Shown: one piece after another, positions 15,945 through 36,261 of the stretch | How positions within the stretch are numbered: the stretch's first letter is position 1 | How the letters are laid out: every line of letters begins with the position of its first letter | Assembly: GCF_001989615.1 (NCBI RefSeq) | Contig: NZ_CP019067.1 | Span: forward strand, 1-64,000 | Source of the DNA: Halorientalis sp. IM1011 | Lineage (GTDB): Archaea; Halobacteriota; Halobacteria; Halobacteriales; Haloarculaceae | Reading direction: 5' to 3' | Length of the DNA: 64,000 bases | Notes under the pieces: generated by a model | The model's database searches: none | Told to the model about the DNA's origin: nothing | Seen by the model: the letters and a program-made list of their open reading frames with translations, nothing else | Program-made: the position numbers and the translations under genes

Positions 15945-16122
15945 GGGGTCGTGGCCAAGTCCGGCATGGCGACTGACTCCAGAGGCACCGCGCCCGGTGA
16001 CGAAACTCCAGACTGATATACTGAGCGGACGGCTGATCACCGCCCGCGCTGATGACCCTCTGGAGTTCCGAGGCGCGACCGGAGATATCAGTCGATCGGG
16101 AGTTCAAATCTCTCCGACCCCA
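15945..16122 (+). tRNA. tRNA-Trp (CCA) with 104-nt intron
   Basis: Exon 1 runs GGGGTCG to G37 at 15982, with the CCA anticodon at 15979-15981. Exon 2 begins at A38 (16087), followed by TCAGT pairing with ACTGA. The acceptor end CGACCCC plus A closes at 16122. The deduced intron, 15983-16086, contains a ctgatgacc box C-like element and ctga box D-like elements. In Haloferax the equivalent intron is a C/D guide RNA that directs 2'-O-methylation of the tRNA itself; that role is inferred here from position and boxes. Confidence 0.92.
15983..16086 (+). ncRNA. tRNA-Trp intron, probable box C/D guide RNA
   Basis: A 104-base intron at the canonical 37/38 site, released by the tRNA splicing endonuclease. 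Box C-like tgatga occurs at about 16049, and ctga boxes occur near 16002, 16018 and 16035. Guide pairing was not modelled in detail. Confidence 0.6.
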
Positions 16123-21900: not shown

Positions 21901-22188
21901 CGAGCGATTGCGAACGCTCCTTCCTCGATCCTCAGGTAGTTGACACGGTCGTCGAATTGCCACCTGAGTCGGGTGGGTGTCGACGTGCGCGGTGCGTGAA
22001 TCTGCGAGACTGGCATCCCGTAAGGGGATCTATCGATGTGTAGATGGGGGTGAATAAAATCAGTACTGGTTGCAGTACGTGTCCGTCAAAACCCGCCTGG
22101 CGTCAACTGTGAACCGACACGGGATGCTTACACTTTCACTCTGGTCCCCTCAGGCTTAAAATCTCCTTTGTCACAACAGTAGTAAAGA
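21851..22188. other. Left end of element: two hairpins next to attL
   Basis: Immediately inside attL are GGAATTG/CAATTCC (21851-21871) and a perfect 8-bp stem CGTCAGGC/GCCTGACG (21881-21902). They could be integrase arm or excision sites, or a terminator for the truncated dinB transcript. No gene was found in the remaining bases before 22189. Confidence 0.45.
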
Positions 22189-23265
22189 ATGTCTGAAGAG
22201 GTGGGAAAGATTGCCATCGCCTTTGCAGTAGCGATAGTCGGAATGAGTCTTGCTTTTTGCGGAGGCTCATCGCCACAAATGATGGGTGGTGGAGGTGGCC
22301 CAGTGAACACAGCAGGACAAAACCCAACGCAAGGACCACAGACTACTGATGTGGAAACGGTCAAACTCTCTTCTCAAGAGGAAAAGCAGGTCGAGGCAAC
22401 GACATCAAACTATTTTGAAAAACTGCCCTCAACACAGTCTGCACGCCAAACAGAGACAATTGAGGCTGCAACGAAACTGTGCAACTACAATCAGCAATTC
22501 AGTGAGACAATCAACTTCAGTGAAACTGCTGATAATGCATCCAAGGTCGAGAGTCTCTCACGACGGGCAGACTTTGGTGTTCAGATCATCAACGAACACT
22601 TCAACGACCGTCTTGATCGGTCAGCAACGAACGAGATTCGCCAGGCCGCAGGTGACGTAGCCAAATACGCACCGCTGGCAGCCAGCTACAACAAGATGGT
22701 TGAAGACGGGTGTGCTGTCAAAGAAAACCCAACAAATGCGACGATGGAGGACTTCTACACCAGTTCACTCTACTTCGGTGTTGAATTCACCATGGTGCAA
22801 ATGGGAGTATTCTATCAACCAGCTTTTACTGGCACCAGAATAGTGTCGAATACGGTTGGCCTCTATCGGATTCGCCAACTTTGCGGTAACCGATGTTATG
22901 CCCTGGCAATGAGTGAGATCCACTGGGGACTTCGAGGGGCACCATCTGGTGTGATGGGATATCTGCGAGAAAATCAGGATAGAGGAAATCTGAGCGTACA
23001 GGTGGATAATGTCAATATGACCGCAGTGATGGCGGCTCAAGGGCAGGAATACTCCAAGTCAGCAATTAAGCAATGTGGGACTGGTAAGGAAACATCTGAT
23101 CAGAAACCGTCTGAGAAGGGGATTGGTGAGAAAGTAGGAGGACTTGTCGAGGAGGGAACACAACGCTTCGAAAATGAGACAAACATCAGTATCGACGGGG
23201 CTATTCCCTCACTGAGTCCTAAGAAACTGTTCGAGAATGCAGCAGATAATCTGAGTACCTGCTGA
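22189..23265 (+). CDS. Secreted or membrane-anchored protein of unknown function
   Basis: A 358-residue element protein starting MSEEVGKIAIAFAVAIVGMS. The N-terminal hydrophobic helix (residues ~7-24) is followed by LAFCGGSSP, an imperfect lipobox, then Gly/Gln/Thr-rich linker sequence. The rest is mostly helical, with the Cys residues CGNRC in the middle and a C-terminal Cys (NLSTC). It is probably exposed outside the cell. I recognise no family; a surface or virion-like protein is possible but not shown. Confidence 0.75.
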   Translation: MSEEVGKIAIAFAVAIVGMSLAFCGGSSPQMMGGGGGPVNTAGQNPTQGPQTTDVETVKLSSQEEKQVEATTSNYFEKLPSTQSARQTETIEAATKLCNYNQQFSETINFSETADNASKVESLSRRADFGVQIINEHFNDRLDRSATNEIRQAAGDVAKYAPLAASYNKMVEDGCAVKENPTNATMEDFYTSSLYFGVEFTMVQMGVFYQPAFTGTRIVSNTVGLYRIRQLCGNRCYALAMSEIHWGLRGAPSGVMGYLRENQDRGNLSVQVDNVNMTAVMAAQGQEYSKSAIKQCGTGKETSDQKPSEKGIGEKVGGLVEEGTQRFENETNISIDGAIPSLSPKKLFENAADNLSTC

Positions 23266-23830
23266 ATCTGTAAAGGAACAATCCAAGCGAGATCACCCTC
23301 TCCACCCCAGCGCCTTCTAAGTATACTATCTAACACAGACAGTATTACACTACTACAGTAGTCTTTAGTGTCATAGTGTGCTGTTGCTGTAAAAAATAGA
23401 CTCTCCCCCTAAAACAGCATCAAGAATAGGGATAGGGTATTGGTAATGGTGTATACCAATTGTAGTGTCATAACCTATCAGATGTGTACTGACAGTTTCC
23501 TGTTTCCGCCCTGTACAGAGGATTAGTGTCCGTTCACATCCAGTATCTTCCCTGATAGTTTATGGGGAAAGAGCCACTCGTGCAGGGAATGTGTGGATTT
23601 ACACTGATAGCAACCGATCAGTGTGCTATGTGATCGGTCACATGGCCCAGATACTGCCTCGTTCCATGTGGGTATTACAGACCACTCGACGGCATGGAGC
23701 TTCCTGACGCAATTGGCTTGCGGGTGGTAACCAGTTACTATCCCGTTCGAGTGGCAAGTGCATAAACCCTTTGCTGCGATTCCATACGTAGAGGCCCTGA
23801 ACAGGCTCTTAACATAGTGGGAGTGAAATA
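23266..23830. other. Gene-free A/T-rich stretch
   Basis: About 565 bp without a credible gene. The motif tagtgtcata appears twice (about 23366 and 23463). An inverted repeat CCGATCA/TGATCGG lies around 23613-23640. These may be regulatory or origin-related, but nothing decisive is visible. Confidence 0.4.
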
Positions 23831-24139
23831 TTATTCAGTGGCAGTATTCTTACACAGTCCGATATGAGGGTCAGAGAACGAATTGATCGTGAGTCGAGAC
23901 GGAATGATCTTGGTTTCGATTGAAACCGTTGAGAGTTTTGCATCTGCCTTGCTAATCAAGCCTGAGACCTGTGAGGGACCATGCTCGTAGAGTATATAGA
24001 GTGGATAGTGGAGAGACTGACGGCCATCGCTACACTGCCTGATAACAATATGATACCCGTGAGTCGGTTTGTTTTGGATACGGCCCAATACACCTGTCTC
24101 TAGAAAAAGTCGGAGAGGCGTTCGATATTTAGAGTGCAA
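23831..24139 (-). CDS. Hypothetical 102-residue protein
   Basis: Reads MHSKYRTPLRLFLETGVLGRI, then THGYHIVIRQCSD, HYPLYILYEHGPSQVSGL and an end near HIGLCKNTATE. The composition is protein-like but basic. It is the only frame of this size in a long gap and faces away from the rep operon. There is no family match I can name; it could be a remnant. Confidence 0.4.
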   Translation of the reverse strand: MHSKYRTPLRLFLETGVLGRIQNKPTHGYHIVIRQCSDGRQSLHYPLYILYEHGPSQVSGLISKADAKLSTVSIETKIIPSRLTINSFSDPHIGLCKNTATE

Positions 24140-24284
24140 TTCAATAGTGATAGGTTGTGAAGAAAGAAGGCGTTGAATATGGACGTTTGTCTTCTCTTTT
24201 GATGTTGGTAGTGTACAGTCGAAGGATTTTTCCGCCTCGCGCTATTACGGGAGACTAACGGCCGATTCACGCCTCTCGTCAGAT

Positions 24285-24384
24285 GGGCTACGTATATCTA
24301 TCCGACGAGAAGATAGGAAAATGGGGAACCCGTTGGCGCGGGTTTTAGTACGAGTTTGGAAACCTCGTATTTCTCCGTAAGCCC
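24285..24384 (+). promoter_or_regulatory. Cloverleaf-like structured segment upstream of HTH-rep operon
   Basis: The ends pair as GGGCTACG (24285-24292) with CGTAAGCCC (24376-24384, one bulged A). Inside are three hairpins: CTATC/GATAG (24298-24316), AACCCG-TTGGCG-CGGGTT (24327-24344) and TACGAG/CTCGTA (24349-24369). The whole forms a four-way junction ending 75 bp before the HTH gene start. It could be a leader RNA or a DNA origin structure. It lacks tRNA landmarks (no TTC T-loop, wrong arm sizes). Confidence 0.6.
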
Positions 24385-24459
24385 TTGCTCCTATTAATGA
24401 TTGCGTCCTCTTGTGGGGCGCTCCGACAAGTGGCGCTGTTGGCGGTCGGGAGAGTCAGC

Positions 24460-25098
24460 ATGAACGGCGAACCCGACGAAAATGGCGACGGTAGTATAGA
24501 CTTTGAACGGAGTACATTTGAACACGGTGCAGAGCCGTGGAAAGACCCCGCAGTACTGCGACAACTCTACCATGAGCATGATCTGTCCCAAGAACAGGTA
24601 GCGGAGGAACTGGACACGACCCAACAGAATATCCAATACTGGATGGATAAACTGGATGTCGAAGCTCGCCTTCCCATGCATGAACGGGATCGTTCAATCT
24701 CACGGATTGTTCGGGAGGATGGACGTGTGCAGTATCACATTCCCGATGGCGACGGTGGGACAGTTTACCTCTATGAGAGTCAGATTGTCGCACTTGCTAT
24801 TGCTGATCTTGGTTTGATCTTTGACGAAGATAGCGAAGTTGACCACCTGTTGAAATCCCCCATCAAACTCAATATTGTAGAGAATCTCGCCATTCGCAGC
24901 ACCGAAGACCACCGAAAGCGACACGGCAATGAGAGAGGTGCCCTCCCGAACACGACATTGTTCGACTTCCTGTATGGGGAGCCAGAGGACGAAGAAACGC
25001 CAGAGTTCTTCGAACGTCTCGATCAGTGGGGTCAGTGGTGGGTCGATATTGAAGGAGTTGAAGAAGTCCACGAGGACAGCCCTCTCAATGCTGACTGA
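24460..25098 (+). CDS. HTH protein cotranscribed with the replication initiator
   Basis: A 212-residue acidic protein starting MNGEPDENGDGSIDFERS. A helix-turn-helix lies at residues ~34-66 (LRQLYHEHDLSQEQVAEELD, then TTQQNIQYWMDKL), followed by a compact C-terminal domain of unknown type. It ends nine bases before the HUH initiator gene, so it is probably in the same transcript and may control copy number. The start at 24460 is preferred over an upstream in-frame ATG because the codons before it are unlike the rest. Confidence 0.75.
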   Translation: MNGEPDENGDGSIDFERSTFEHGAEPWKDPAVLRQLYHEHDLSQEQVAEELDTTQQNIQYWMDKLDVEARLPMHERDRSISRIVREDGRVQYHIPDGDGGTVYLYESQIVALAIADLGLIFDEDSEVDHLLKSPIKLNIVENLAIRSTEDHRKRHGNERGALPNTTLFDFLYGEPEDEETPEFFERLDQWGQWWVDIEGVEEVHEDSPLNAD

Positions 25099-25107
25099 GG
25101 ACACGCA

Positions 25108-26181
25108 ATGCCCTCAGAATCGCCGTTCATCGACCCCGAGGAGCAACGGGTCCTTCCAGACACAACCGCTGATAGCATCGAGGAGCAATACCTGTCGGTT
25201 CGTTCTGGAACCAACCTACGATCTGAAACAGTGACTATCAAAAACCGATCAAAACAGTGGGACGCGGTGGTTGAGGCGTTCAAGGATTACGTCTGGCGAC
25301 AGCACAAGGCAGCGAACACGTGGGCTGACGAGAGGGGTGTTCGACCGAATAGCCACAGGTTTACTGAACGGGCGTCACTTGACAGATACGGCAGAACACT
25401 GGGTGTTGATCGAGCGGCTGGACAGCTCTGGGGTGGAGACCTAACTACTGTCCATGTTGTTCGTCGTGCCAGACCATTCGGAGAGGATGGACAACCCCAA
25501 CCGCCTGCCGACTTCCTGAGCGACCTGCTGGCTGGTGATAGGAATGTCTATCGGGCATATCAGAGACACATCGAGGAAAACCACGGCTTGCAGTATGCTC
25601 GTTTGTCAGTGCTGGAACCCCATGGTAACGGGTATCCACACATCCATGACGCCCTCTGGGTCAACGACCCCGACGCCGTCCTCTGCGAGACGGACATCTA
25701 TCCCGCCGTCGATGCCCACCTGGACGCCGTCGAACAAGCACAACCCAGAAACCACAGTGACGCCGTCGAGGTACGACACGACCCAGAGCGCCGAAAGTAT
25801 CCATCTGACCCCAAGGGTTCACACCCAACAACCCCACTACCACGAGAGGTTACAAAGTATCTTGCAGGCCTCGCACCCCATGACGAGGACTCAGACCGTA
25901 AGGGGAACGTCCCGAACGTTCTCCAAGCCAACAGGGGACCACTACGGTTCTATGCCCTACTGTGGGCGAGTGGGATCAGACAGTGGCGACCAGACCAGCA
26001 GTTGTTCCAGCGGTTTGTGACACTGTCCCAAGACTGGTATGGGGCCGACGACGGTGAACGGGAAACGAACACAGAGACGTACCCAGACCCCGAGGACATC
26101 GACACCAGCAGCGGGATCGAAACTGTGGACATCGACAGTAGGCCAGTAGACTACGAACCGTTTGTCGCAGACAAAGTGTAG
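25108..26181 (+). CDS. HUH rolling-circle replication initiator (Rep)
   Basis: A 357-residue protein starting MPSESPFIDPEEQRVLPD. The metal-binding HUH motif is GYPHIHDALWV (His178, His180), preceded by LQYARLSVLEPHGNG. A likely catalytic tyrosine follows in EVTKYLAGL (Tyr251). This order is that of rolling-circle initiators of haloarchaeal plasmids and some pleolipo- and SNJ1-like viruses. It would nick one strand at the origin and ligate the displaced circle. The gaggac before the ATG may serve as ribosome-binding site. Confidence 0.82.
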   Translation: MPSESPFIDPEEQRVLPDTTADSIEEQYLSVRSGTNLRSETVTIKNRSKQWDAVVEAFKDYVWRQHKAANTWADERGVRPNSHRFTERASLDRYGRTLGVDRAAGQLWGGDLTTVHVVRRARPFGEDGQPQPPADFLSDLLAGDRNVYRAYQRHIEENHGLQYARLSVLEPHGNGYPHIHDALWVNDPDAVLCETDIYPAVDAHLDAVEQAQPRNHSDAVEVRHDPERRKYPSDPKGSHPTTPLPREVTKYLAGLAPHDEDSDRKGNVPNVLQANRGPLRFYALLWASGIRQWRPDQQLFQRFVTLSQDWYGADDGERETNTETYPDPEDIDTSSGIETVDIDSRPVDYEPFVADKV

Positions 26182-26186
26182 AGGGC

Positions 26187-26347
26187 CACCCCTCGCTCTA
26201 TGATACCTACCGTGTTAACTTTCCAATTTCAAGATACAGCAGTATACCCTACTGAAACCTCTGTGGTGGTACAGTACTCGATTTAGCAGGGTATAAAAAG
26301 GGGTGTTGCACAGTGCGGAGAACCAAACCGTCGAACATAGATACGAT
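26187..26347 (+). promoter_or_regulatory. Promoter with TATA box and inverted repeat
   Basis: A clear archaeal TATA element, tataaaaag, at 26292 lies about 55 bp before the next start. It overlaps one arm of the inverted repeat TATACCCT (26243-26250) / AGGGTATA (26288-26295). A repressor bound to the arms would cover the TATA box. Confidence 0.55.
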
Positions 26348-26752
26348 ATGAGTCAAGAATTTCACGAAGCCACGACAGAACAGGTAGAGGGGCCATCAGA
26401 AGACAAATCTGTATTCCACGAAGTCGACCATCTGAGGGAGCTAAAGCCAGGGTACTTCCCAGACCTGATTACGCACCCAGAGACCTCGATTAAGATTTGT
26501 CACGATGGACGGGAACTGCTGGCTATCGAGGATCCAACTGGGATGGAAATCACTCGACCTCGTATGACGACGGACTTTGGCAAGAAACGGATTAAGTTCC
26601 GTTTAGACACCGTCTTTGAGGTAGTGGACCCTGAGGACGACGGCGACGACGAGAACGAGGAGGAGGACACTGAGGACAATGACGACACCACGACCAACAA
26701 GGATGGATACGACACTGAGGGCAAAACGGTGCTGACACTCAACGACGGATAA
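26348..26752 (+). CDS. Hypothetical acidic protein
   Basis: A 134-residue protein starting MSQEFHEATTEQVEGPSED. A globular part (KPGYFPDLITHPETSIKICH; LLAIEDPTGMEITRPR) is followed by a highly acidic Asp/Glu/Asn tail and a final GKTVLTLNDG. No domain recognised. The start at 26348 follows the TATA-containing promoter. Confidence 0.65.
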   Translation: MSQEFHEATTEQVEGPSEDKSVFHEVDHLRELKPGYFPDLITHPETSIKICHDGRELLAIEDPTGMEITRPRMTTDFGKKRIKFRLDTVFEVVDPEDDGDDENEEEDTEDNDDTTTNKDGYDTEGKTVLTLNDG

Positions 26753-26890
26753 CCTTTGAAGGAGAATAGGCATAGATAGGGGACAGTTTTCTCTTTCTTC
26801 TCGCCCTGCTCACTATGCGATGCCTGTGGTTCTCCATTCCAATTGTGCCAGTGGCAAATGTATAATGGACGGTAGGTTCTATTGCCACCA

Positions 26891-27619
26891 ATGTCAGGTA
26901 CTGTCGATCTAAGAACCTATCTTCAGTCTATCGATCCATACGATTTCGAGAAGTTGGTCGCGGCAGTCTGGAATGAATCTGGATTCGAGACTGATGTACA
27001 GAGCAAAAGTAATGATCGGGGGATCGACGTTGTCGCCAGGAAGCGCAATCCCATCGAACAGATACAATTCATCCAGGTGAAACGATACTCTGATGGAAAC
27101 AAAGTTGGGAGCGAGGAAGTTCGGAAGTATGCTACTCTCTACCAACAGTCTGACGCAGTAGATGTTGTTGTGATTGTGACGACGAGCGAGTTTACGACAC
27201 AGGCAGAACGCCTCGCCAACGATCTTGACATGAAGACTGTCGACGGCTATCAACTGTGTCGGATGATACAGGAGACTGGTGTGCTATCCGATCTGATGGC
27301 GGACGAGGGGGAGTCACAGGAGCAGGAATTTGACTGGGAAAACCCTCAAAATGTACGGGATGGACCAGTTGAGGAAAAAGAGTTGAGCGAGGCAGGAACA
27401 AACACAAACAAGCAAATACCTAATAAGCAGACAGAGTCTGGAGAAGATGGGTCGTCGAAAAGTCTCACAATTTATTTAGTGGTATTTGTTTTGCAGATGT
27501 TCTTTCTGGTTCTTGCATTTTCTATGATCAACAAGGGTGTAGAGTGGTTGGTGGGTCTTTCATTTTTTGTGGCAATGACACTTTCTGGCAAACTTATAAA
27601 AATGAGATTTGTCGATTGA
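26891..27619 (+). CDS. Mrr-like restriction endonuclease-fold protein with membrane tail
   Basis: A 242-residue protein. The N-terminal Mrr catalytic-type domain (YDFEKLVAAVWNESGFETDV) has Asp46 in RGIDVVARK and the QxK motif at Gln62/Lys64 (FIQVKRY), the active-site layout of the PD-(D/E)XK superfamily. A linker of ~60 residues leads to two hydrophobic helices at the C-terminus (YLVVFVLQMFFLVLAFSM and GLSFFVAMTLSGK). Membrane-tethered Mrr proteins are seen in prokaryotic defence and mobile elements. Target DNA unknown. Confidence 0.75.
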   Translation: MSGTVDLRTYLQSIDPYDFEKLVAAVWNESGFETDVQSKSNDRGIDVVARKRNPIEQIQFIQVKRYSDGNKVGSEEVRKYATLYQQSDAVDVVVIVTTSEFTTQAERLANDLDMKTVDGYQLCRMIQETGVLSDLMADEGESQEQEFDWENPQNVRDGPVEEKELSEAGTNTNKQIPNKQTESGEDGSSKSLTIYLVVFVLQMFFLVLAFSMINKGVEWLVGLSFFVAMTLSGKLIKMRFVD

Positions 27620-27748
27620 ACGTAGTCAAAGGGAAAGACAGCAGAGCTGTTAGCATACCCTTAGTGCCCGCTAATCACGTTTCCTGAGGGAAGAAAGAGA
27701 AAGACGACCAATCCCCTTCGTTGTTACTCGTGAGGACTAAGAACGTAC

Positions 27749-29152
27749 TTAGATTTCCTTCGTCCCACTGTTGACGACTGTGATGTCTTCATCACGAGTG
27801 GCGAACGAGCATTGAACCTCTGTTCGAGCAAGCCCATTCTCACCCCGTTGGGTTGGTCCAGCATGATGGGTCAATCGTTCGATTTCGTACTGGAAGACAG
27901 TGTCAGAGCTACACTGGAAGGGCAGTTGGAGAATGTCGTAGGGACTGAGATAGGGACTCAGTGTGAACGTGGCGTTCCCATGTCCTGCCTGATCCATACG
28001 CTGTTTTAATTCCTGCTTTGCAGCATTCACCAATTGCCCTACTTCACGGATTTCGGCTTTTTCCACCTGTGTCGTGACCTCTTGGCCAGCGATTTCGTAG
28101 GTGGGTTCGTGGCGGACTTTGGCGATCGCTTTCACTGATTCGAGATTAGTTCTGACACGATCTGTACTACTGACCAACCCACCAGACTGTGAGAACTGGC
28201 CACCATCGCTACCATCACTGTCTGTATTGACGACGGTTCGGCCACCAACCACTTCCAGTGTGTTTATCGGGTTGATCTCTGCCAGCAAGTCGTTCTCAAG
28301 CAGGTCGAGTGTTCCGTCGTTGTGCTTGGGCTTGTATGCGTACTGCTGTTGGGGTGGTTCGATCACCAGACGACGGCTGGACTGGTTCGTCGATTCAGGT
28401 GGACCGAACCGTAGTCGAATATTTGCGATATTTTCGACGTATGCAGCTACGTCAGCCAGCGATTTCGTATAGGTCTCAAAGTTTTTGTTAATCAACACTT
28501 TGTCTGGCTCTTGGCTTTCCTCCTCGTTTGTCGTGACAGCGTCATCGAAGACAGTATTCAATGCTGGTTCGACGTAGTCTTCATAAATCTGCATCACACC
28601 CCCACCAGCGGCTTGATCTGTCCCATCATCTGCAACTTCATCAGAGTCAGCAGGTGTGATTTCGATCCCATCAGAGAGAACAAGCGGTATCGAGTCGTAT
28701 GTGGGGTTGCGTTCTTCAAACGAGGTAGCCAGCCGTTCGAGAACGGTCTTTAGACTCGTCTGTTTCGTGAACCGATCTTGTTTTTGAACGGGAAACTCCT
28801 TCATCAGCAGGGCAGGGTCAACAACTCGAAGGCGAGCTTCAAGCGGCCCACTCTGCCCTGAGCCAATGCCTGCGACAATACCACTGGCTTCGGAGGCGTG
28901 TGCTTCTTTTCCCCAGTGAAGGACCTCGATATCACAGATACCGTACTGGGCATCCATGTACACGTCTGTCCAGTCCTGTCCATACGAGTCTTCGAGTGGG
29001 ACATAGACATCTGCAACGAATTGCTGGGATAGTGGCCCCTCCTTGCGCCATTCCACTCGTGCCCCATCCTCGATGATCGGGACTCGCTGTCCATCGAGGT
29101 AGACTTTGGCAGGTGGATTACACTCACCATCGGGTTCCTGAAACTCAGGCAT
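27749..29152 (-). CDS. Phage baseplate-hub (late control D)-like protein, tentative
   Basis: A 467-residue protein. The start MPEFQEPDGECN at 29152 is chosen because ggaggggag precedes it by 7 bases. Early segments (AKVYLDGQRVPIIEDGARVE; SGIVAGIGSGQSGPLEARLR, then VVDPALLMKEF) and the C-terminal half (SPYLSPYDILQLPF; YEIERLTHH) follow the pattern of gpD/gp27-type baseplate hubs. This is a fold-pattern judgement without alignment. It overlaps the 73-codon upstream gene by eight bases. Confidence 0.6.
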   Translation of the reverse strand: MPEFQEPDGECNPPAKVYLDGQRVPIIEDGARVEWRKEGPLSQQFVADVYVPLEDSYGQDWTDVYMDAQYGICDIEVLHWGKEAHASEASGIVAGIGSGQSGPLEARLRVVDPALLMKEFPVQKQDRFTKQTSLKTVLERLATSFEERNPTYDSIPLVLSDGIEITPADSDEVADDGTDQAAGGGVMQIYEDYVEPALNTVFDDAVTTNEEESQEPDKVLINKNFETYTKSLADVAAYVENIANIRLRFGPPESTNQSSRRLVIEPPQQQYAYKPKHNDGTLDLLENDLLAEINPINTLEVVGGRTVVNTDSDGSDGGQFSQSGGLVSSTDRVRTNLESVKAIAKVRHEPTYEIAGQEVTTQVEKAEIREVGQLVNAAKQELKQRMDQAGHGNATFTLSPYLSPYDILQLPFQCSSDTVFQYEIERLTHHAGPTQRGENGLARTEVQCSFATRDEDITVVNSGTKEI

Positions 29153-29366
29153 CGTTATTCTCCCCTCCAACGAAGCGATACCGTCCGTCACTCACTCGTT
29201 CAAAGTCCTCCTCGTACTGTTCGATGTAGGAATGAGTCAAATGCCATAGGACAGCTCCTCGACCACCATACCCACCCAACTTCTCACGATAGTGACGGGA
29301 CACTTCATCAAGTGAGGAGGACAGACATTCCCCAATCCTAACCGTAGCAGTTGCTCCCGAGAGCAT
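29145..29366 (-). CDS. Small protein coupled to the hub-like gene
   Basis: A 73-residue protein starting MLSGATATVRIGECLSSSLD and including HYREKLGGYGGRGAVLWHLT. It overlaps the next gene by eight bases, with the ribosome-binding sequence of that gene inside its own end, which indicates translational coupling. No recognised family. Confidence 0.6.
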   Translation of the reverse strand: MLSGATATVRIGECLSSSLDEVSRHYREKLGGYGGRGAVLWHLTHSYIEQYEEDFERVSDGRYRFVGGENNDA

Positions 29367-29831
29367 GTATTGTGTTCACGCCCCAACCACAAAAACGTTG
29401 CCCTTTAGTGTCTTGAATGTACCCTACTGTTAAAGATTCCTCTCATTGGCCAGATTATAACTAATGCGCATACGCACATCTATGCCATGTTTGTGACCAC
29501 GTCGGGAGTATCCCTATCGAACTGGTAGTGACACCCGTCCCCCTGTAATGTGTGGGCTGTATCTGAAAAATTCTGAGAGATAGCAGGATCGGGGTCGAGA
29601 ATCTGTCTTGTGACAGATAACCCACAGGGGGGTATAACCACGTGAGTAGATGCCGAAACGGGCGGACCCCCCGATCCCCTCCCCATGTGACGCATTCCTC
29701 AGTCGTCATCTAATGAACCATATGGGGGTGCGGGGTGTCTACAGAGTACTTACCATGTCGTTTCAGTTTGGACTATTTGAAAGTGTAAATATTGAGAGTT
29801 TTATCGTGTTTGCCGCAGTATGGGTAGTAGA
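29367..29831. other. Gene-free stretch between divergent units
   Basis: 465 bp separating the minus-strand pair from the plus-strand small genes. It contains A/T-rich promoter-like segments (around 29440-29470 and 29770-29815). A 78-codon frame from 29650 has poor protein character and no start context, so I do not call it. Confidence 0.4.
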
Positions 29832-29960
29832 ATGTCAGACCTTGATTTATCCGACTGTGAACTCACCGAAGAACATCTTGAAGTGATAGTTCAGATGGAT
29901 GGGGAACTTGCGAAGTATGCTCAGAAACTGCTTGACGAACTAAACACCGAAGAGGGGTAA
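29832..29960 (+). CDS. 42-residue acidic protein
   Basis: Reads MSDLDLSDCELTEEHLEVIV, then QMDGELAKYAQKLLDELNTE. It is typical haloarchaeal acidic helical sequence, so it is likely a real small gene. Upstream gtagtag may act as ribosome-binding site. It is the first of three small plus-strand genes. Function unknown. Confidence 0.55.
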   Translation: MSDLDLSDCELTEEHLEVIVQMDGELAKYAQKLLDELNTEEG

Positions 29961-30044
29961 CCTGCTGTTCAGTTTGGTGGTATATGAAAGTATCATTATT
30001 CCAGGTATTATGGTGGTAGAGATGCAACGTGGTAGTAACTCACC

Positions 30045-30107
30045 GACGGATTGCGTCTGAAAAGACGCGCCTGTTGGAGCAGGCCCGTCAGTGGGTTGAG
30101 GCAACCC
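30045..30107 (+). promoter_or_regulatory. Structured leader A (three-way junction plus AUG-proximal hairpin)
   Basis: P1 GACGG/CCGTC (30045-49 / 30085-89) encloses P2 GCGTC-TGAAAA-GACGC and P3 GCCTG-TTGGAG-CAGGC. P4 GGGTT-GAGGC-AACCC (30093-30107) then abuts the ATG at 30108. The only Shine-Dalgarno-like bases (GAGG) sit in the P4 loop. A TATA-like tatatgaa near 29981 predicts a ~100-nt leader. The same architecture occurs at 30689. Confidence 0.8.
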
Positions 30108-30551
30108 ATGAGTAAAATGCAGTCTGCGGAGCATGAAAGTTCCGCCACGGCGAAGCACAGTTCACAAACGAACGACGGCAGTAAGACCACTGCGCCCAGT
30201 GAGGAGCCTTTTGCTGATCGTCGCTGGGAACGGTCGAACATGCAGCAGATGGCCGATGAGATAATCCGTAACGCTCGGTCCCTCGATCCCCAGTCTGATG
30301 ATCGATTTGAGACGGAGAACCACCACGATGTCCCGATAACGGCCACGACGATTCAGACCTTCCTGTTCGCTGGGAAACGCCGCTCGGTCCGTAGACAACG
30401 CGACGGACGGACTCTCTCAGTTACAGTCGAACATTCTATCTGGTTCAGTGACGACATAGAGGGGTTCGTTCAGTTCCACATAAAGGGAGACATTGAGACG
30501 AAGGACGTGAAGTCTGTCGACGTTGTCTCAGCGCGGGAAGAAAAGCGGTAG
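30108..30551 (+). CDS. Hypothetical protein behind structured leader A
   Basis: A 147-residue protein starting MSKMQSAEHESSATAKHSSQ, with a low-complexity first 35 residues. A basic middle follows (FLFAGKRRSVRRQRDGRTLS) and a beta-rich end (VEHSIWFSDDIEGFVQFHIK). No family recognised. The start at 30108 is fixed by the leader hairpin, whose 3' strand ends at the base before the ATG and whose identical twin also stops exactly at an ATG. Confidence 0.7.
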   Translation: MSKMQSAEHESSATAKHSSQTNDGSKTTAPSEEPFADRRWERSNMQQMADEIIRNARSLDPQSDDRFETENHHDVPITATTIQTFLFAGKRRSVRRQRDGRTLSVTVEHSIWFSDDIEGFVQFHIKGDIETKDVKSVDVVSAREEKR

Positions 30552-30688
30552 GGTCAGCAGTAATATATACATACGCTTTCTGTTCATTCTAATCGTAACC
30601 GACTAACAGCGGTGCTGTATAGAGTACTTTAATCCTGATATGAACCACCACAACTAAGGGGGTGGCATATCTACGTAGAAGTAACTCG

Positions 30689-30752
30689 CTGCGTGTTCGC
30701 GCTTTGCAGAAAGCGCCCCGTTGGAGCGGGACGCAGTGGGTTGAGGCAACCC
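30689..30752 (+). promoter_or_regulatory. Structured leader B (same fold, compensatory changes)
   Basis: P1 CTGCGT/ACGCAG (30689-94 / 30731-36), P2 GCGCTTT-GCAG-AAAGCGC (30699-30716), P3 CCCG-TTGGAG-CGGG (30717-30730), P4 GGGTT-GAGGC-AACCC (30738-30752), then ATG at 30753. Compared with leader A the stems differ in sequence but keep pairing. The P3 loop, the whole P4 hairpin and an upstream gtaactc are unchanged. A TATA-like tactttaa near 30625 predicts a ~100-nt leader. Confidence 0.8.
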
Positions 30753-31259
30753 ATGACCGAGTACGCCACTGAGGTTCAAGAACCTCACGACCTGGAAGAC
30801 CGTACCGTTCGCGCACTAACTGAATGTATGTCGGCTCTCCCTGAAGGTGGAGACATCTACACCGTCGTCAGTGAGTCGGGAAGCTCCTACAAAGTCGACT
30901 CACGACAAGGACGATGCAGCTGTCCCGACAGTCAACATAACCTCGATGATGACGAGTCGTGTAAACACGAGCGACGGGTGGCCTTCGCCACTGGGGTCCA
31001 TGAGGTTCCTGACTGGGTCAACACTGACGCCATCGATCCGCAGTTGGGTGACCACGTCGAAGGTCCGTCAGTCGTTACTGACACCGTCACAAGTACCACT
31101 CAGGCAATAACCGACGGTGGTACTACGTTGGCCACCTCCCAAGAGAAAGATGTCGAGAGTGCAGATACTGAGAACGACGACTGTGATTGTTCCAAACTAC
31201 CTGACGGCTGCCCCTGCTGGCCCTGCTATCGAGAAGGAAAGGCGACATTCAGCGACTGA
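30753..31259 (+). CDS. SWIM zinc-finger protein behind structured leader B
   Basis: A 168-residue protein starting MTEYATEVQEPHDLEDRTVR. A SWIM-type zinc motif spans residues 55-72 (CSC, then a 12-residue gap, then CKH), preceded by YTVVSESGSSYKVDSRQG. A second Cys cluster lies at the C-terminus (CDCSKLPDGCPCWPCYRE). SWIM domains bind DNA or proteins and occur in transposases, recombination mediators and haloarchaeal element proteins. The role here may be regulatory. Confidence 0.75.
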   Translation: MTEYATEVQEPHDLEDRTVRALTECMSALPEGGDIYTVVSESGSSYKVDSRQGRCSCPDSQHNLDDDESCKHERRVAFATGVHEVPDWVNTDAIDPQLGDHVEGPSVVTDTVTSTTQAITDGGTTLATSQEKDVESADTENDDCDCSKLPDGCPCWPCYREGKATFSD

Positions 31260-31280
31260 GGACAATCGGTCTCGACTCTT

Positions 31281-31745
31281 TCAGAGAACCGTAACTTGGA
31301 GTATGGTAAGCACTATTGAGAGGAAGGCAACTACGGCGTAGTACCCGAGCAGTCCAGTATCTTTAATCCTATTTCGTTCCCACTTTTTTCGACTCTCTCC
31401 ACTGGGAAATAGCGACTCAATTCCATCGATCTCATCGAAATTGTAGTCTTTGGCTGTAAGTTCGGAAACAATTGCATTTTGTAGGTTTTCAGATTGTCTC
31501 CGCCCATTCTGATATGTCCGTGTCCAGAGTCCTAACGAGAAGAAAACCACCCCGACGAAAAAACACAGAACAGTTCTTGATTCATCTGTGCTTTCTTGGA
31601 GGAAAAGCCCAAGGAAGGCACTTAGGAAGACAAGGCTGAGATAGAATGTTCTGTGGATTACAGTGTTGTAGTGGTTATGCTCTTGACTTATTTGGTCATA
31701 GCGAGTCAACAATAAATCGGTATTCTCTGATTCATCTGGAGTCAT
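31281..31745 (-). CDS. Small membrane protein, SLATT-like layout
   Basis: A 154-residue protein starting MTPDESENTDLLLTRYDQIS. An N-terminal helix leads to a two-helix hairpin (FYLSLVFLSAFLGLFL and VLCFFVGVVFFSLGLW), then a cytoplasmic segment and a final helix (GYYAVVAFLSIVLTIL). The layout resembles SLATT membrane effectors associated with nucleotide-signalling defence. I cannot confirm that family, and no nucleotide cyclase is nearby. Confidence 0.6.
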   Translation of the reverse strand: MTPDESENTDLLLTRYDQISQEHNHYNTVIHRTFYLSLVFLSAFLGLFLQESTDESRTVLCFFVGVVFFSLGLWTRTYQNGRRQSENLQNAIVSELTAKDYNFDEIDGIESLFPSGESRKKWERNRIKDTGLLGYYAVVAFLSIVLTILQVTVL

Positions 31746-31891
31746 ATTGCAGGGCAAGGGCGGTGGTTAATTCATATTTTCCCTCAGTCCATTGCGAACA
31801 GAGAAGGAGAGATATGGTAGAGACTCTTGCGTGCCCTGAGCCAATACCAGAATGGAGGGCAATTTAATAGGCTGGGTTTACTACTACTACT

Positions 31892-31913
31892 TGGATTGGC
31901 TGGTGGCCCCGAC
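31892..31913 (+). repeat. 22-bp direct repeat, left copy
   Basis: Perfect 22-bp match (starting tggattggctggtggcc) to 32124-32145. The two copies bracket the 47-residue gene. Confidence 0.75.
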
Positions 31914-31939
31914 TGCGATGGTCGGAACCTCCACCAGTG

Positions 31940-32083
31940 TTACAACACCCTGAGCAGCCGCGCCAGCAACACTGTGACTTCGAGTACCAACTTCACCGCT
32001 CGCAGATCCATCAGGGTGGATTCTGCCTCATCGTCAGACTCCCGTTCTGTTTCCTCCTCGGGAGTATCATCGTCTTTGGTCAT
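31940..32083 (-). CDS. 47-residue protein between direct repeats
   Basis: Reads MTKDDDTPEEETERESDDEA, then LMDLRAVKLVLEVTVLLARL and LRVL. An acidic head is followed by one amphipathic or membrane-inserting helix, the layout of small toxins or holin-like peptides. It is bracketed by 22-bp repeats. Function unknown. Confidence 0.55.
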   Translation of the reverse strand: MTKDDDTPEEETERESDDEAESTLMDLRAVKLVLEVTVLLARLLRVL

Positions 32084-32123
32084 AGCGACAGCTCTCCATG
32101 TGTGGTCACGTCGAGAACCGTCG

Positions 32124-32145
32124 TGGATTGGCTGGTGGCCCCGAC
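32124..32145 (+). repeat. 22-bp direct repeat, right copy
   Basis: Second copy of the repeat, 232 bp from the first, upstream of the minus-strand 47-codon gene. Confidence 0.75.
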
Positions 32146-32176
32146 GTGAACCACATATCTTCAGAGGGAAGGGTTA

Positions 32177-32404
32177 CTAATAAATCTCGGCCCACGGTTC
32201 ATCCCAAAGTTGGGTGATTTGCCCCACCTCCGTCCCCAAGGTTTCGGGGCCGAGCGTGTCGCGTTCGAGGGCAGGCAAGCGGAGGCTGTCACGATGCTTT
32301 GCATCTGACAGCCGAGCAACTGCCCCGAACCGACCTCTCGTTACATCCTCACTAATCTGAATATCTTTAGAAGTCGAAGTAAAAATTATGGCATATCGAA
32401 TGGG
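32177..32404 (-). other. GC-rich structured segment; possible origin or gene remnant
   Basis: About 170 bp of chromosomal-like G+C inside A/T-rich DNA. It contains TCTCGGC (32185-32191), an inverted repeat CTCGGCC/GGCCGAG, and the long stem GGCTGTCA-c-GATGC / GCATC-TGACAGCC (32284-32313) within GGGCAG/CTGCCC (32269-32325). TCTCGGC resembles nick sites I recall for haloarchaeal rolling-circle plasmids. On the minus strand a 75-codon frame is also open, ending QITQLWDEPWAEIY, but it has no start codon. Confidence 0.5.
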
Positions 32405-32464
32405 TTATTGATCCCAAGTATCCACAATACTGAAATATGTCTGAATCATGGCTACTGTCATTAA

Positions 32465-34987
32465 ATGAGAGTCCCATCTGTTAGGATAGCTCGTATTCTG
32501 TATGTCGCTATTCAGCGGATAATTGCAGGCCGCTATTCAAGAGTGACTGGGATCAGTATTGGAATGGCCATATCTTTGGCAACAGCAGCACTTGGGTATC
32601 TTATAGGACCATCGGTCGTTGGTATTCTGCCAGACTATCTAACATATGAGTTTGAAAAGAGCGATTTGCGCACTCTCTGGGCAATTCACGCTACTGTTTT
32701 CACATTCAGTCTTGTTGCGCTTTCTTTTGCTTGGCAATCAGTTCGTGGATTATCCACAAATGCAGAAATTATTTCAGAATTAGCTGATGAGCTTCGATCA
32801 ATTGAGACAATCACATTCTTTTTGTCAGCAAACGTTTTGATCGGGATTGGATTATTGACTACGGAATCGGATGTAGTCACTTCAGAGATTGGAACGGTTT
32901 CGTGGTTATTGTTGGTCGTCAGTATGATTGTGGCGGTCCGTAGCTTTTGGAGAGTTTTTGACTTACTCCTCCACAACACACTTGATCATAAAGTGATGGA
33001 GTTTGCGAAAGCTGCCCGTCAAAACAAATATGGCGAAGGAACAGAACGGTATGATTCATATCTACGTCATTTCTTCAATGCAGCACAGCGAGAAATCGAC
33101 CAAAATCATCCCAAACGACTTCGAGAAAAATTGGATCAAGTTGAAGACCTGGTCGAAGACCTGACCAAAGACGGTTCTGAAGTATTACCACAAGTCTGGA
33201 CATTCATTGAAACACGATATCTTTCGCTCCATCGTAGATGTGTCAAGGAGGATGATTTTGAATTAGAAAAAGAAGTGATTGGCTCATGGTATGGATTGTA
33301 TCTGACTATCTCAAACGAGAAGGTGGATGAGGAAATACCGCGCAGGGCTCTTGAGGGATTTGCTACTCTGTTTGGTCAAATGACTACTACCAAACAACGG
33401 AATCAAGATATTGACGTATTGATTACCCGCTATAGGAATGCCCAAGCTGGTATTCTGTCGTCATTCGAAGACGCTGCATCAAAAAAGGAGTTAGAATCAA
33501 CATCAGAATCCCTGAACTGTTGGTTTCAGACGCAGACCTCTTTCTGGAGAACAGCGGTTCAAAATGAGGAAATTTACGCCCTGAGTGCGCTGTATGAGAT
33601 GTCTGAGAGTCCACTTCAATTTCGACGGGGTAGGTACGCCAGACAGATACCAAATGATGCAATAAATGGTGAAGTAGATGCCGATGAAGAACTGAACCAA
33701 CAGAAACAGGACATTGCTGATGAGTACAGAGAAGCAATTGATAAATTGAGATTTGCAACATATGGTTGGGCATTCAAATTATACCGTGAGGATGATATCA
33801 GTGGGGAGTTTTTCCTGAGGGTGTTTGAAGAGTTTGTCGAGGACGACTTCGGAAATCATCGACAACTTACGGAGATCTTCTTTAATATAGTTTCTGAGGA
33901 TAATCCACTGGGTTATTGGGAGCGATGGAATCTTGAACATGAACTGGACACAAGTCATGGGGCGGTCATGACAGGTATGGCTGCAAATACCTGGCTGCTT
34001 CAGTTTTATTGTGCAACACTTGTTTGGGCAGTAGATTCGAATGAGATCTCTAATCTCAGTAACCGTGATCCAAAGAATTCACCAGTCCTTGAATATCATC
34101 GTCCACAGAATCGTCTTGATAAAATAATCAAACAGCTTGAATCCTATACCACTGACTACCCACTTGAAGAGTTTCTTGATACAGGTCCTACAATAGAAGG
34201 GCGAGTGAGAGTCTTAATTAGCTATTTTGAAAGTGTGAAGGAGGCCAGCAAAGAAGATCATAAAGAGTGGATCAGGGAACAAGAAGTGTCCTCCAATAAA
34301 GTTGAGAGCTTAGCCGACAATATCAATTCGCAACTGGAGTCATGTGGTTTTCGTAAAGCCCTGAATCAAGTCGGAACCATTCAAACCGCATCTTCAGTCA
34401 ACGAAGCCAACGAATTTTCGCTGGAAGGGACTTGGCAACGTGGTTTGTTCGTCGATGACGATATATCAACATTTTACCAGACCAATTTCCCAAATATTAT
34501 GGAAGAATATCACAATTTCGTCATAGAACAACTACAATTTGATGAGCGAACAATCAATTCTTTATCTGAGTTACCTGACTTACTGGAAGAGCTAATATCC
34601 CACGAAAGTGTTGAATGTTTGGTATTAGAGCAAGTAGACGCTCTTAGCGAACTTCGAGATGATGAACGATTTGTGAGGAATGCAGGAAATCCCGCAGAGT
34701 ATTGTCCTGAATTTGCTGGAGTCCCCATAGAAGAAGATAGTATGACGGACTGTGTTGTGGTTGTGCTATTCGATACTGATTTCGAGTACATCGAAGAAGT
34801 AGATCGGCTTCCAATAACTGTGTCTGCAACCCCTGGTGAACAGGTTCAGGGTTGGGGTCAGGAGGATGTCCCAGAAGACGTAAATATTCGGGACAACGTC
34901 AAAGTTGAGATTACTTACCGCGCCAAAATAAGTAGTCCAGAGCAAAACGGCGTTGCCTTCTATCTGAATCAGCACAATGGTGAATAG
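32465..34987 (+). CDS. Large four-helix membrane protein of unknown function
   Basis: An 840-residue protein. Four hydrophobic helices lie in the first ~165 residues (GMAISLATAALGYLIGPSVV; ATVFTFSLVALSFAW; FFLSANVLIGIGLL; SWLLLVVSMIVAVRSFW). A ~670-residue helical cytoplasmic region follows, without a nucleotide-binding or nuclease motif I can see. It has strongly A/T-biased codons compared with the host. It is the largest gene of the element. A membrane sensor or effector is conceivable but not shown. Confidence 0.75.
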   Translation: MRVPSVRIARILYVAIQRIIAGRYSRVTGISIGMAISLATAALGYLIGPSVVGILPDYLTYEFEKSDLRTLWAIHATVFTFSLVALSFAWQSVRGLSTNAEIISELADELRSIETITFFLSANVLIGIGLLTTESDVVTSEIGTVSWLLLVVSMIVAVRSFWRVFDLLLHNTLDHKVMEFAKAARQNKYGEGTERYDSYLRHFFNAAQREIDQNHPKRLREKLDQVEDLVEDLTKDGSEVLPQVWTFIETRYLSLHRRCVKEDDFELEKEVIGSWYGLYLTISNEKVDEEIPRRALEGFATLFGQMTTTKQRNQDIDVLITRYRNAQAGILSSFEDAASKKELESTSESLNCWFQTQTSFWRTAVQNEEIYALSALYEMSESPLQFRRGRYARQIPNDAINGEVDADEELNQQKQDIADEYREAIDKLRFATYGWAFKLYREDDISGEFFLRVFEEFVEDDFGNHRQLTEIFFNIVSEDNPLGYWERWNLEHELDTSHGAVMTGMAANTWLLQFYCATLVWAVDSNEISNLSNRDPKNSPVLEYHRPQNRLDKIIKQLESYTTDYPLEEFLDTGPTIEGRVRVLISYFESVKEASKEDHKEWIREQEVSSNKVESLADNINSQLESCGFRKALNQVGTIQTASSVNEANEFSLEGTWQRGLFVDDDISTFYQTNFPNIMEEYHNFVIEQLQFDERTINSLSELPDLLEELISHESVECLVLEQVDALSELRDDERFVRNAGNPAEYCPEFAGVPIEEDSMTDCVVVVLFDTDFEYIEEVDRLPITVSATPGEQVQGWGQEDVPEDVNIRDNVKVEITYRAKISSPEQNGVAFYLNQHNGE

Positions 34988-35548
34988 TTAACCCCGTACA
35001 GTGGGTATCGGGAACAAATAATCCTGATCAACGATATGGTACTCTTTTCCATGATATTGCTGAATCGGTGCGTTCGCGACGAACCACCGTGGAGCGTAGC
35101 CTATCAATCGACAATCCACCTTTCCGATACGACTTGCTAACACGTAGTAGTCAGCAGTCAGAGGTTCGTAGGCATCGACAGTGAGGGCAGGATTCGAGCG
35201 GTGTCGACCGACTGTTTTCACGTCGATAGTGGCCCCTCGATAGGTGAGATCGACACCACCATCCCCACCATCGGCGTACACTTCGGTGTTCAACCGTTGT
35301 TCGATACCAAGGTGGTGTGCGATGGCGTCCTCACCAATGAGTCCTGTTAGGTGATTCTCTGTTGTCCCGCTGGTAGTGTCTGCAATACGGACAGCGTATT
35401 CCCGAAGTGGATAGAATCGATTTTGCTCTACGTGATGCAGAGGAAACTGATCGAGGGAGAACTGGGCGGCTGAAATGAGCGGTGTCGGTGCTGGCTCAGT
35501 CACGGGCTGTACGTCGTTTCGGTCGGAATCGCGTTTCTCTGTGGACAT
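34988..35548 (-). CDS. PD-(D/E)XK nuclease-fold protein
   Basis: A 186-residue protein. The start MSTEKRDSDRNDVQ at 35548 avoids reading through the hairpin-rich upstream region. The core GLIGEDAIAHHLG (Glu73) and GVDLTYRGATIDVKTVG (Asp100, then Asp109-Val-Lys111) form the PD-(D/E)XK signature, followed by YYVLASRIGK. Such proteins are nucleases of repair, restriction or anti-plasmid function. No partner helicase or specificity subunit is adjacent. Confidence 0.7.
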   Translation of the reverse strand: MSTEKRDSDRNDVQPVTEPAPTPLISAAQFSLDQFPLHHVEQNRFYPLREYAVRIADTTSGTTENHLTGLIGEDAIAHHLGIEQRLNTEVYADGGDGGVDLTYRGATIDVKTVGRHRSNPALTVDAYEPLTADYYVLASRIGKVDCRLIGYAPRWFVANAPIQQYHGKEYHIVDQDYLFPIPTVRG

Positions 35549-35862
35549 GGATGTCTCTACTGGTAGCCCACCGAGCTTCCCGACCGAAGAAGTCAGGTTG
35601 ACCCAGTACAAAGGGTCAACCAACCCTTCGGGCATCGGGCTATCTCGGTGGCCGATGGGTTGCAACAGGGCGCTTGTGCTTGATGGGCCAACGCCCTGGT
35701 TTTCGACTAACACGTTCGCAAGCGACAGATATCTCTATGGGCTGTTACTCTATTCAGCAGTCCGCTCACGGGCTGAATCCCGTATATCTTGCGAACGTAA
35801 CTGGAAGTGAAGAGACGGTAAGTATTAATCCCGACGGCCGTAACACAGATTGTCTACTTTAT
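35549..35862. other. Hairpin-rich intergenic region between divergent genes
   Basis: 314 bp holding stacked inverted repeats: GGTTGACCC/GGGTCAACC (35596-35621), CATCGG/CCGATG within AACCC/GGGTT (about 35622-35660), CAGGGCG/CGCCCTG (35666-35698) and CGTTCGCAAG/CTTGCGAACG (35713-35797) enclosing ATTCAGC/GCTGAAT. It may be a leader RNA pair, a single-strand origin or an integrase accessory site. Confidence 0.5.
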
Positions 35863-36261
35863 ATGGAGAGACACAAAGTACAAAACCTCTATGAAATAAA
35901 TGAGGTGAAGATAGAGTTAGTTAGAAAGACAACATATGATGGGTTTGAGAATTTAGGAATGGTTGTTTCCTGCTCATCTGGGGGATGGCGACGGAATAGG
36001 TTCAGAAGAGCGAAACCCTTAGCAACACTTGCTGCCAAATTCAGCCCCGAATTGATTTCAAGAGGCGCAAAAGACTGCCTACCCGTTGAGATCGCCGTTC
36101 ATGGAAAACCTGCAATGGCAGTTTATTTCTACTCTGTATATTGTGAAGATTCTAATATAATAGCTGATAAAATGAGGGTTGAACGGGGGACTGTCCATCA
36201 ATACGTGCGGCGATTTGTCAACTCTGTAGAAGGGGAGTATGAACCCACTTCATTTAAATAA
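35863..36261 (+). CDS. Small HTH protein near the integrase
   Basis: A 132-residue protein starting MERHKVQNLYEINEVKIELV. The C-terminal part, IADKMRVERGTVHQYVRRFV, reads as a helix-turn-helix. The middle has the Trp/Arg-rich SGGWRRNRFRRAKPLATLAA. Similar small proteins are frequent next to haloarchaeal integrases and may regulate integration. The ATG at 35863 follows a tactttat promoter-like sequence. Confidence 0.6.
   Translation: MERHKVQNLYEINEVKIELVRKTTYDGFENLGMVVSCSSGGWRRNRFRRAKPLATLAAKFSPELISRGAKDCLPVEIAVHGKPAMAVYFYSVYCEDSNIIADKMRVERGTVHQYVRRFVNSVEGEYEPTSFK

What the first reader, a model, noticed from the sequence alone, without database searches (positions are those of the whole stretch)
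24285..24384. Cloverleaf-like four-way junction upstream of the HTH-rep operon
A 100-nt segment closes on itself (GGGCTACG/CGTAAGCCC) around three clean hairpins, one with the hexaloop TTGGCG, close to the TTGGAG loop of the twin leaders. It lies in the leader of the replication operon. It may belong to the same RNA class or be an origin cruciform.
Basis: seen in the sequence. Interest (0 to 1): 0.55.

Follow-up and report, generated by a model that had tools for sequence, protein, structure and literature searches.

The report
Folded leader before archaeal replication genes
The folded stretch is real but is most likely the variable upstream part of a structured leader in front of the replication genes of a mobile element in a salt-loving archaeon, and by our tests it does not belong to the striking, widespread switch-like RNA leaders found a few kilobases away in the same element.

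Summary
The base pairs described at 24285-24384 exist, but the four-way 'cloverleaf' appears only when the segment is cut out. In the 213 nt up to the HTH start codon its closing stem has pairing probability 0.000, and forcing it costs 8.4 kcal/mol. The predicted fold there is a hairpin (24274-24310) followed by a three-way junction closed by 24312-24318/24389-24395, holding the UUGGCG hairpin and one with loop UUUGGAAAC. The stretch lies upstream of an HTH gene and a DUF1424 HUH Rep gene in a ~15-kb low-GC integrated element of a Halorientalis-type haloarchaeon. Two related HTH genes also have strongly folded leaders. Only the 3' block near the start codon is conserved in sequence (its pattern: 3 of 391 genomes, each at this gene). 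The finding's 100 nt are not.

'Same RNA class as the twin leaders' was tested with a covariance model and not met (0.4 bits). The origin motif of small DUF1424 plasmids was not found. The comparison class itself covaries strongly and is found in 178 of 272 haloarchaeal genomes, with no Rfam match in the loci tested. Best reading: leader RNA of the HTH-rep operon; a DNA replication signal or plain spacer remain open.

The parts
24250..24459 (+). presumed leader of the HTH-rep operon (5' end not mapped; start codon taken as ATG 24460, an in-frame ATG lies at 24397)
   Evidence: no ORF of 60 aa or more over 24140-24384 on either strand; fold of 24250-24462 z -2.16 (+) and -3.09 (-); relatives L003 z -3.75/-6.07 and L004 z -4.46/-3.69; 5' end is a guess
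   Evidence: pair probabilities 0.89-1.00; inverted repeat I4
   Evidence: folds as drawn only when cut out
24312..24395 (+). three-way junction closed by GATAGGA (24312-24318) and TCCTATT (24389-24395)
   Evidence: pair probabilities 0.87-0.995
24327..24344 (+). hairpin H2 AACCCG-TTGGCG-CGGGTT
   Evidence: p 0.67-0.82 in context
24349..24369 (+). hairpin H3 TACGAG-TTTGGAAAC-CTCGTA, loop contains UGGA
   Evidence: p 0.82-1.0; UGGA-loop test
24402..24452 (+). conserved 3' block near the start codon, core CCGACAAGTGGCGCTGTTGGCGGTCGGGAG; no consistent predicted fold
   Evidence: alignments with L003 (score 26) and L004 (score 22) beat 500 of 500 shuffles; pattern in 3 of 391 genomes, each at this gene; folds differ between relatives
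24460..25098 (+). HTH protein gene
   Evidence: 63% identical relative in L003, 37% in L004
25108..26181 (+). HUH replication protein gene, PF07232 (DUF1424)
   Evidence: E 2.1e-16, 60.3 bits against a cut-off of 23
30034..30110 (+). comparison only: first of the twin leaders
   Evidence: R2 E 2e-4, 22.1 bits, filters off
30680..30755 (+). comparison only: second of the twin leaders, before the SWIM-type gene
   Evidence: R2 E 4.8e-6, 28.2 bits, filters off

Best explanation
The segment is the upstream, fast-evolving part of a roughly 200-nt structured 5' leader of the HTH-rep operon of an integrated, plasmid-like element. Shown by computation: the segment is non-coding and sits before the operon; the leaders of two related HTH genes also fold far better than shuffles; only the block near the start codon is conserved in sequence. 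Inferred: the RNA folds into a hairpin and a two-hairpin (three-way) junction, and this fold, together with a factor that recognises the conserved start-proximal block, sets how much HTH protein, and with it Rep, is made, so that replication stays low while the element is integrated. I put most weight on control at the RNA level (translation or stability); the factor is unknown.
For: Position before the HTH and DUF1424 Rep genes, no ORF of 60 aa or more over 24140-24384 on either strand. Leaders of all three related HTH genes are more structured than dinucleotide shuffles on the sense strand: z -2.16, -3.75, -4.46. Helices upstream of the block have high probability: H1, junction helix and H3 in the window; the junction helix P1, H2, H3 and most of H4 in L003; the long hairpin, H1 and H4 in L004. 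The 3' block is conserved at the nucleotide level: the three pairwise alignments score 22, 26 and 15 with 0 of 500 shuffles as high, and there is a one-base indel inside it; a pattern written from these three sequences occurs in 3 of 391 genomes, each time at this gene, against 2 matches of the reversed control pattern. UGGA lies in a hairpin loop in 3 of 3 leaders.
Against: The finding's own part of the leader is not conserved in sequence: 44, 133 and 13 of 500 shuffles score as well in the three comparisons, so its helices cannot be tested by covariation with three sequences. The other strand folds as well or better relative to shuffles in two of three leaders (window -3.09, L003 -6.07, L004 -3.69), so a role as DNA is not excluded. 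The conserved block has no common predicted fold: CCGAC/GTCGG has probability 0.0 in the window and CCCGA/TCGGG 0.0 in L003, a GAC/GTC hairpin has 0.55 in L004, and the hairpin GCGTCC/GGGCGC that would match L004's H4 has only 0.02-0.03 in the window; this speaks for a sequence-specific site, which could be DNA. L003's first hairpin is weak (outer pairs 0.12-0.44). No transcript or start-site data were available. The start codon is uncertain: the frame is open through the block in the window and L004, and an in-frame ATG at 24397 directly follows the junction, so the block could be coding in the window.
Confidence: 0.45

Rival explanations
1. The hairpin array is a DNA signal: part of a double- or single-strand origin used when the element is excised and replicated by the HUH Rep, or, for the conserved block, a protein-binding site on DNA.
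For: Adjacent to an HUH Rep gene. Both strands fold better than shuffles. The conserved block is kept as sequence without a common fold. Hairpins without sequence conservation are typical of single-strand origins (general knowledge).
Against: A matrix of the core shared by five small DUF1424 plasmids (27.6-30.5 bits for its members, 17.2 in a sixth) reaches 10.4 bits at most in the element and 8.8 at 24282; 20 shuffles of 15.4 kb reach 8.3-14.5. The three HTH relatives share the block although their Reps differ (L003's Rep is 29% identical over query residues 105-212; the protein behind L004's HTH gene is another HUH-like protein by my reading). The closest Rep relative (63%, G068, L033) has no HTH match and in front of rep only weak DNA matches to the window: to about 23547-23724 (E 0.009) and 23379-23415 (E 0.06), none to the finding.
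Confidence: 0.25
2. The segment is a diverged member of the same RNA class as the twin leaders at 30 kb (three-way junction with a UGGA loop on the second hairpin).
For: In context it is predicted to fold as a three-way junction whose second hairpin carries UUUGGAAAC; if translation started at the in-frame ATG 24397, that junction would end one base before the start codon. UGGA loops recur in the HTH leaders of the relatives. In L003 the model's 14-nt P3 hairpin alone is listed (4.4 bits, E 4.9).
Against: Covariance model R2 gives 0.4 bits at 24277-24387 with filters off and nothing at the L003 and L004 leaders above the chance level of the other matches, while it finds the twin leaders it was not trained on. 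A start-codon hairpin P4 competing with P1 was not found.
Confidence: 0.05
3. The hairpins in 24285-24384 have no function of their own; they are unconstrained spacer between the promoter and the conserved start-proximal block.
For: No sequence conservation, modest z for the segment itself (-1.43).
Against: Leaders of both relatives are strongly structured in the same interval, and a UGGA loop recurs in 3 of 3.
Confidence: 0.25

Closest known systems
Twin leaders at 30034-30110 and 30680-30755 and their class
   Same: same mobile element; structured stretch before a start codon; three-way junction in the predicted fold; UGGA in a hairpin loop
   Different: no covariance-model match; no start-codon hairpin P4 that competes with P1
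Putative double-strand origin of haloarchaeal DUF1424 plasmids (pNVE2, pZMX201, pSN, pBOL4-2_2.1, pHGN1)
   Same: related Reps (25-31% identity); non-coding DNA close to rep
   Different: the shared core TCTCGGC...CTAAC is absent above shuffle level
Hairpin origin downstream of the SNJ2 replication gene (Rep-Arvir family, PMC13107129; passages read)
   Same: haloarchaeal integrated element; hairpin near the initiator gene
   Different: Rep-Arvir is described as distinct from the HUH superfamily; that hairpin is conserved and lies downstream of rep; here the segment is unconserved and upstream
pRN1 replication operon (repressor orf56 and Rep orf904, PMC4234260; only the start of the abstract seen)
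   Same: regulator gene and replication gene in one operon, with needed upstream sequence
   Different: crenarchaeal plasmid; no long structured leader mentioned in what I saw

Membership tests
Leader class of the twin leaders (model R2) | covariance-model match | tested here: not met
   0.4 bits at 24277-24387, filters off; not among 14 matches up to E 10 in 22000-37400, where both twin leaders rank first and second
Leader class of the twin leaders (model R2) | three-way junction P1{P2,P3} | tested here: met
   predicted in context, 24312-24395; thermodynamic prediction only
Leader class of the twin leaders (model R2) | P3 hexaloop, commonly CUGGAA, UUGGAG or CGCCAA | tested here: inconclusive
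   H3 loop is UUUGGAAAC (9 nt), H2 is UUGGCG; loops of 44 members counted
Leader class of the twin leaders (model R2) | P4 hairpin ending at the start codon, its 5' strand able to pair with the 5' end | tested here: not met
   no such hairpin in the predicted fold; junction ends at 24395, ATG used here at 24460. Depends on the start codon: an in-frame ATG at 24397 follows the junction
DUF1424-plasmid double-strand origin | TCTCGGC...CTAAC core near rep | tested here: not met
   best 10.4 bits in the element, 8.8 bits at 24282, shuffles 8.3-14.5
DUF1424-plasmid double-strand origin | nicked by Rep | not testable with these tools
   needs protein and DNA assay
tRNA or tRNA-like cloverleaf | ARAGORN or Rfam tRNA match | tested here: not met
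   ARAGORN finds one tRNA in the window, at 10907-10980; Rfam tRNA matches at 10907-10980 and 15945-16122 only
Any Rfam 15 family | gathering-score match | tested here: not met
   none in the window but two tRNAs; in 23450-24500 with permissive filters three matches far below gathering score

The most novel reading that the evidence does not exclude
The UGGA-loop hairpin is a shared docking site: one RNA-binding factor of these elements recognises it both in the switch-like leaders of the zinc-finger genes and in the HTH-rep leader, giving the element one post-transcriptional regulon that couples its cargo to its replication.
Probability: 0.12. Interest if true: 0.75.

Novelty: new member of a known kind. 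Interest (0 to 1): 0.38.

Why it matters
On its own the segment is a plausible but ordinary structured leader of a replication operon in an archaeal mobile element. Checking it mattered for two reasons. It removes a false lead (the cloverleaf and the 'same class' claim). And it led to a description of the class it was compared with: a strongly covarying leader with two helices that compete at the start codon, found in about two thirds of the haloarchaeal genomes tested and without an Rfam match in the loci tested. Natural switch-like leaders are little known in haloarchaea (general knowledge), so that class would make an open question directly testable.

Tried and rejected
Searches for relatives of the Rep protein in genome contigs and viral contigs found none, and in the phage collection none. 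HTH relatives in plasmids (1 record) and phages (12 records) are distant, 31-44% over part of the protein. A further HTH match in the genus (G413, 32% over 90 residues) was fetched but its leader was not compared. The three viral-contig matches to the conserved block (L098-L100) lie inside long coding frames and are taken as chance. Two ideas about the conserved block were dropped: that CCGAC/GTCGG is a plain hairpin, and that a hairpin GCGTCC/GGGCGC covaries with L004's H4; the window's ensemble gives them 0.0 and 0.02-0.03. A shared promoter-like stretch between the window and L004 (ATTTTTCCG...ACGCCTCTC) was not used: 44 of 500 shuffles align as well. Paper searches for the leader class listed nothing that describes it; only listings and starts of abstracts were seen, and most subscription papers are not in the library.

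Full report
What is there. The window is haloarchaeal DNA of 58-70% GC with a low-GC (42-57%) island from about 22.0 to 37.0 kb. Near the island's right end lies a tyrosine-integrase-like gene, 36309-37370 on the minus strand, beside a DNA-polymerase-IV-like gene starting at 37393 (names from my reading of the translations). The island carries an HTH gene (24460-25098) and, directly behind it, a Rep of Pfam DUF1424 (25108-26181, E 2.1e-16).

The observation. In the stretch up to the start codon the closing stem GGGCTACG/CGTAAGCCC has probability 0.000, because GGGCTACG lies inside hairpin H1, TCTCGTC/GACGAGA (24274-24310). A junction is closed instead by GATAGGA/TCCTATT (24312-24318/24389-24395) around H2 (UUGGCG) and H3 (UUUGGAAAC). 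So the predicted structure is a hairpin followed by a three-way junction, not a four-way cloverleaf. It is not a tRNA and matches no Rfam family above chance.

Relatives. Three HTH genes of this kind were compared: the window's, L003 (63%) and L004 (37%). In 391 genomes of the class 54, the own one included, had some match at E 0.001; the others are at most 45% identical, many over the HTH motif alone. In 146 genomes of the family four matched at E 1e-9, the fourth (G413, 32%) was not compared. All three leaders fold better than dinucleotide shuffles: z -2.16, -3.75, -4.46 on the sense strand, but also -3.09, -6.07, -3.69 on the other strand, so folding alone does not say RNA rather than DNA. 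In L003 a junction helix CAGTTC/GGACTG encloses GCACCTG[CUGGAA]CAGGTGC and a second hairpin, with probabilities near 1 apart from one mismatch; in L004 there is one long hairpin ending in UUGGAC. The sequence of this part is not conserved: 44, 133 and 13 of 500 shuffles align as well in the three comparisons. The 3' part near the start codon is: scores 22, 26 and 15 with 0 of 500 shuffles as high. Its pattern CGAYAAGTGGCRCN{0,1}TGTYGG was written from these three sequences and found in 3 of 391 genomes, once each, at these same genes; the reversed control pattern gave 2 matches. The block has no common predicted fold in the three. The start codon is my choice: it matches L003, whose frame is interrupted by a stop just upstream, but in the window an in-frame ATG at 24397 directly follows the junction.

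Same class as the twin leaders? I first had to define that class. The SWIM-type protein behind the second twin leader has matches in 354 of 391 genomes. Of the 30 loci fetched (one of them the window's own), 24 show the same kind of leader by eye and 6 (L076, L079, L081, L083, L084, L085) a different one. A covariance model from six of them (R1) found 13 of the other 18 at E 0.1 or better, and also some members on the opposite strand (best E 0.007), since the stems are palindromic. A second model from 19 matches (R2) finds both twin leaders, which were not in it, with filters off (E 4.8e-6 and 2e-4 over the 15.4-kb element). They are weak members: with default filters only the first is listed, beside a probably spurious match at 56758-56852 (E 0.042), and a search of the whole own genome reports neither. 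R2 gives 0.4 bits to the finding's segment, and in L003/L004 nothing at the HTH leader above chance level; a 14-nt hairpin in L003 reaches 4.4 bits, E 4.9. Membership is therefore not met. A weaker link remains: UGGA lies in a hairpin loop of stem 4 or more in the predicted fold of 3 of 3 HTH leaders, while 27, 19 and 15 of 1000 shuffles show that. The motif was taken from the SWIM leaders, but I had already seen the HTH leaders, so I treat this as suggestive.

Origin? Six small plasmids with related Reps were fetched. Five share TCTCGGC followed at a fixed distance by CTAAC, 36-99 nt before the annotated start of rep in three and 63-105 nt inside it in two; this agrees with the nick site TCTC/GGC that I recall for pZMX201 (recalled, not read). 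A matrix of this core scores 27.6-30.5 on those five and 17.2 on the sixth; in the element it reaches 10.4 at most and 8.8 at 24282, against 8.3-14.5 in 20 shuffles. That origin is thus not visible here. The element's Rep is only 25-31% identical to those plasmids', so a different recognition site is possible. A non-coding region at about 23528-23730 is shared with L004 (64% over 201 bp, E 5.7e-8) and, weakly, with L033 (59%, E 0.009); it is a better place to look for an origin or another RNA.

The class found on the way. On 44 aligned members, 95.6% of cells pair, 21 of 23 pairs have changes on both sides, and the covariation score is 0.512 against 0.159 in shuffles and at most 0.083 when slid; the alignment was fitted to the model, which favours it. 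The 5' end can pair with the 5' strand of the start-codon hairpin P4: helices of 5 or more in 31 of 44, against a mean of 11.4 and a maximum of 18 in 1000 partner shuffles, so two helices compete near the start codon. R2 finds matches in 178 of 272 genomes and 64 of 76 genera at E 0.01 per genome, where about three would be expected by chance; genomes of the training sequences are among them. Of 30 loci of the best matches, 13 have a SWIM motif downstream by a simple pattern; six of those 13 are genes already used above, so 7 of 24 new ones. Others are small proteins, several Cys-rich. No Rfam family overlapped the leader in four member loci tested at E 1 (L059, L075, L077, L080), and neither twin leader reached any Rfam gathering score.

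Verdict. The finding is most likely the variable upstream part of a structured leader of the HTH-rep operon (confidence 0.45), with a DNA signal (0.25) and unconstrained spacer (0.25) as serious rivals.

Noticed in passing
window 30034-30110 and 30680-30755; loci L056-L082, L101-L130: The twin leaders are (weak-scoring) members of a widespread leader class: three-way junction, P3 hexaloop often CUGGAA, UUGGAG or CGCCAA, and a hairpin ending at the AUG whose 5' strand can also pair with the leader's 5' end. 178 of 272 haloarchaeal genomes, strong covariation, no Rfam match in the loci tested.
   Followed up: partly
L105-L130: Genes behind the class's leaders encode different small proteins, several Cys-rich, and a number of them start alike (such as MSTNA..GQES, MATNATDRQ, MTTNATSGQES), as if leader and start of the coding region moved as one module.
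   Followed up: no
L092 (own genome, second contig, C2:212410-212502 minus): A further member of the class outside the window, E 2.7e-9.
   Followed up: no
window ~23528-23730; L004 2580-2774; L033 559-737: Non-coding region shared between elements with different Reps, with TTCCCTG...GGGGAA...CAGGGAA that could pair in two ways; it lies just downstream of the integrase-like gene in L033 and L004. No convincing Rfam match.
   Followed up: partly
L076, L079, L081, L083, L084, L085: SWIM-type genes with another recurrent leader, GCCCCAGCGGGGTGAGGGGCGT or a variant of it, instead of the class described.
   Followed up: no
L003 1435-1467: A 10-codon frame (ATG...TAA) follows the junction in L003 and ends directly before an in-frame GTG that leads into the HTH gene; in the window the same frame has no stop.
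   Followed up: no
L131-L136 (named small plasmids): Five of six DUF1424-type plasmids share TCTCGGC, a fixed gap and CTAAC close to the annotated start of rep; the sixth has a weaker copy.
   Followed up: partly
L037, L039, L044: Members of the leader class lie beside DUF1424-type rep genes in other genomes, on the opposite strand; downstream genes were looked at in L037 and L039 only.
   Followed up: partly
window 15945-16122: tRNA match of 178 nt in Rfam that ARAGORN misses, probably an intron-containing tRNA.
   Followed up: no
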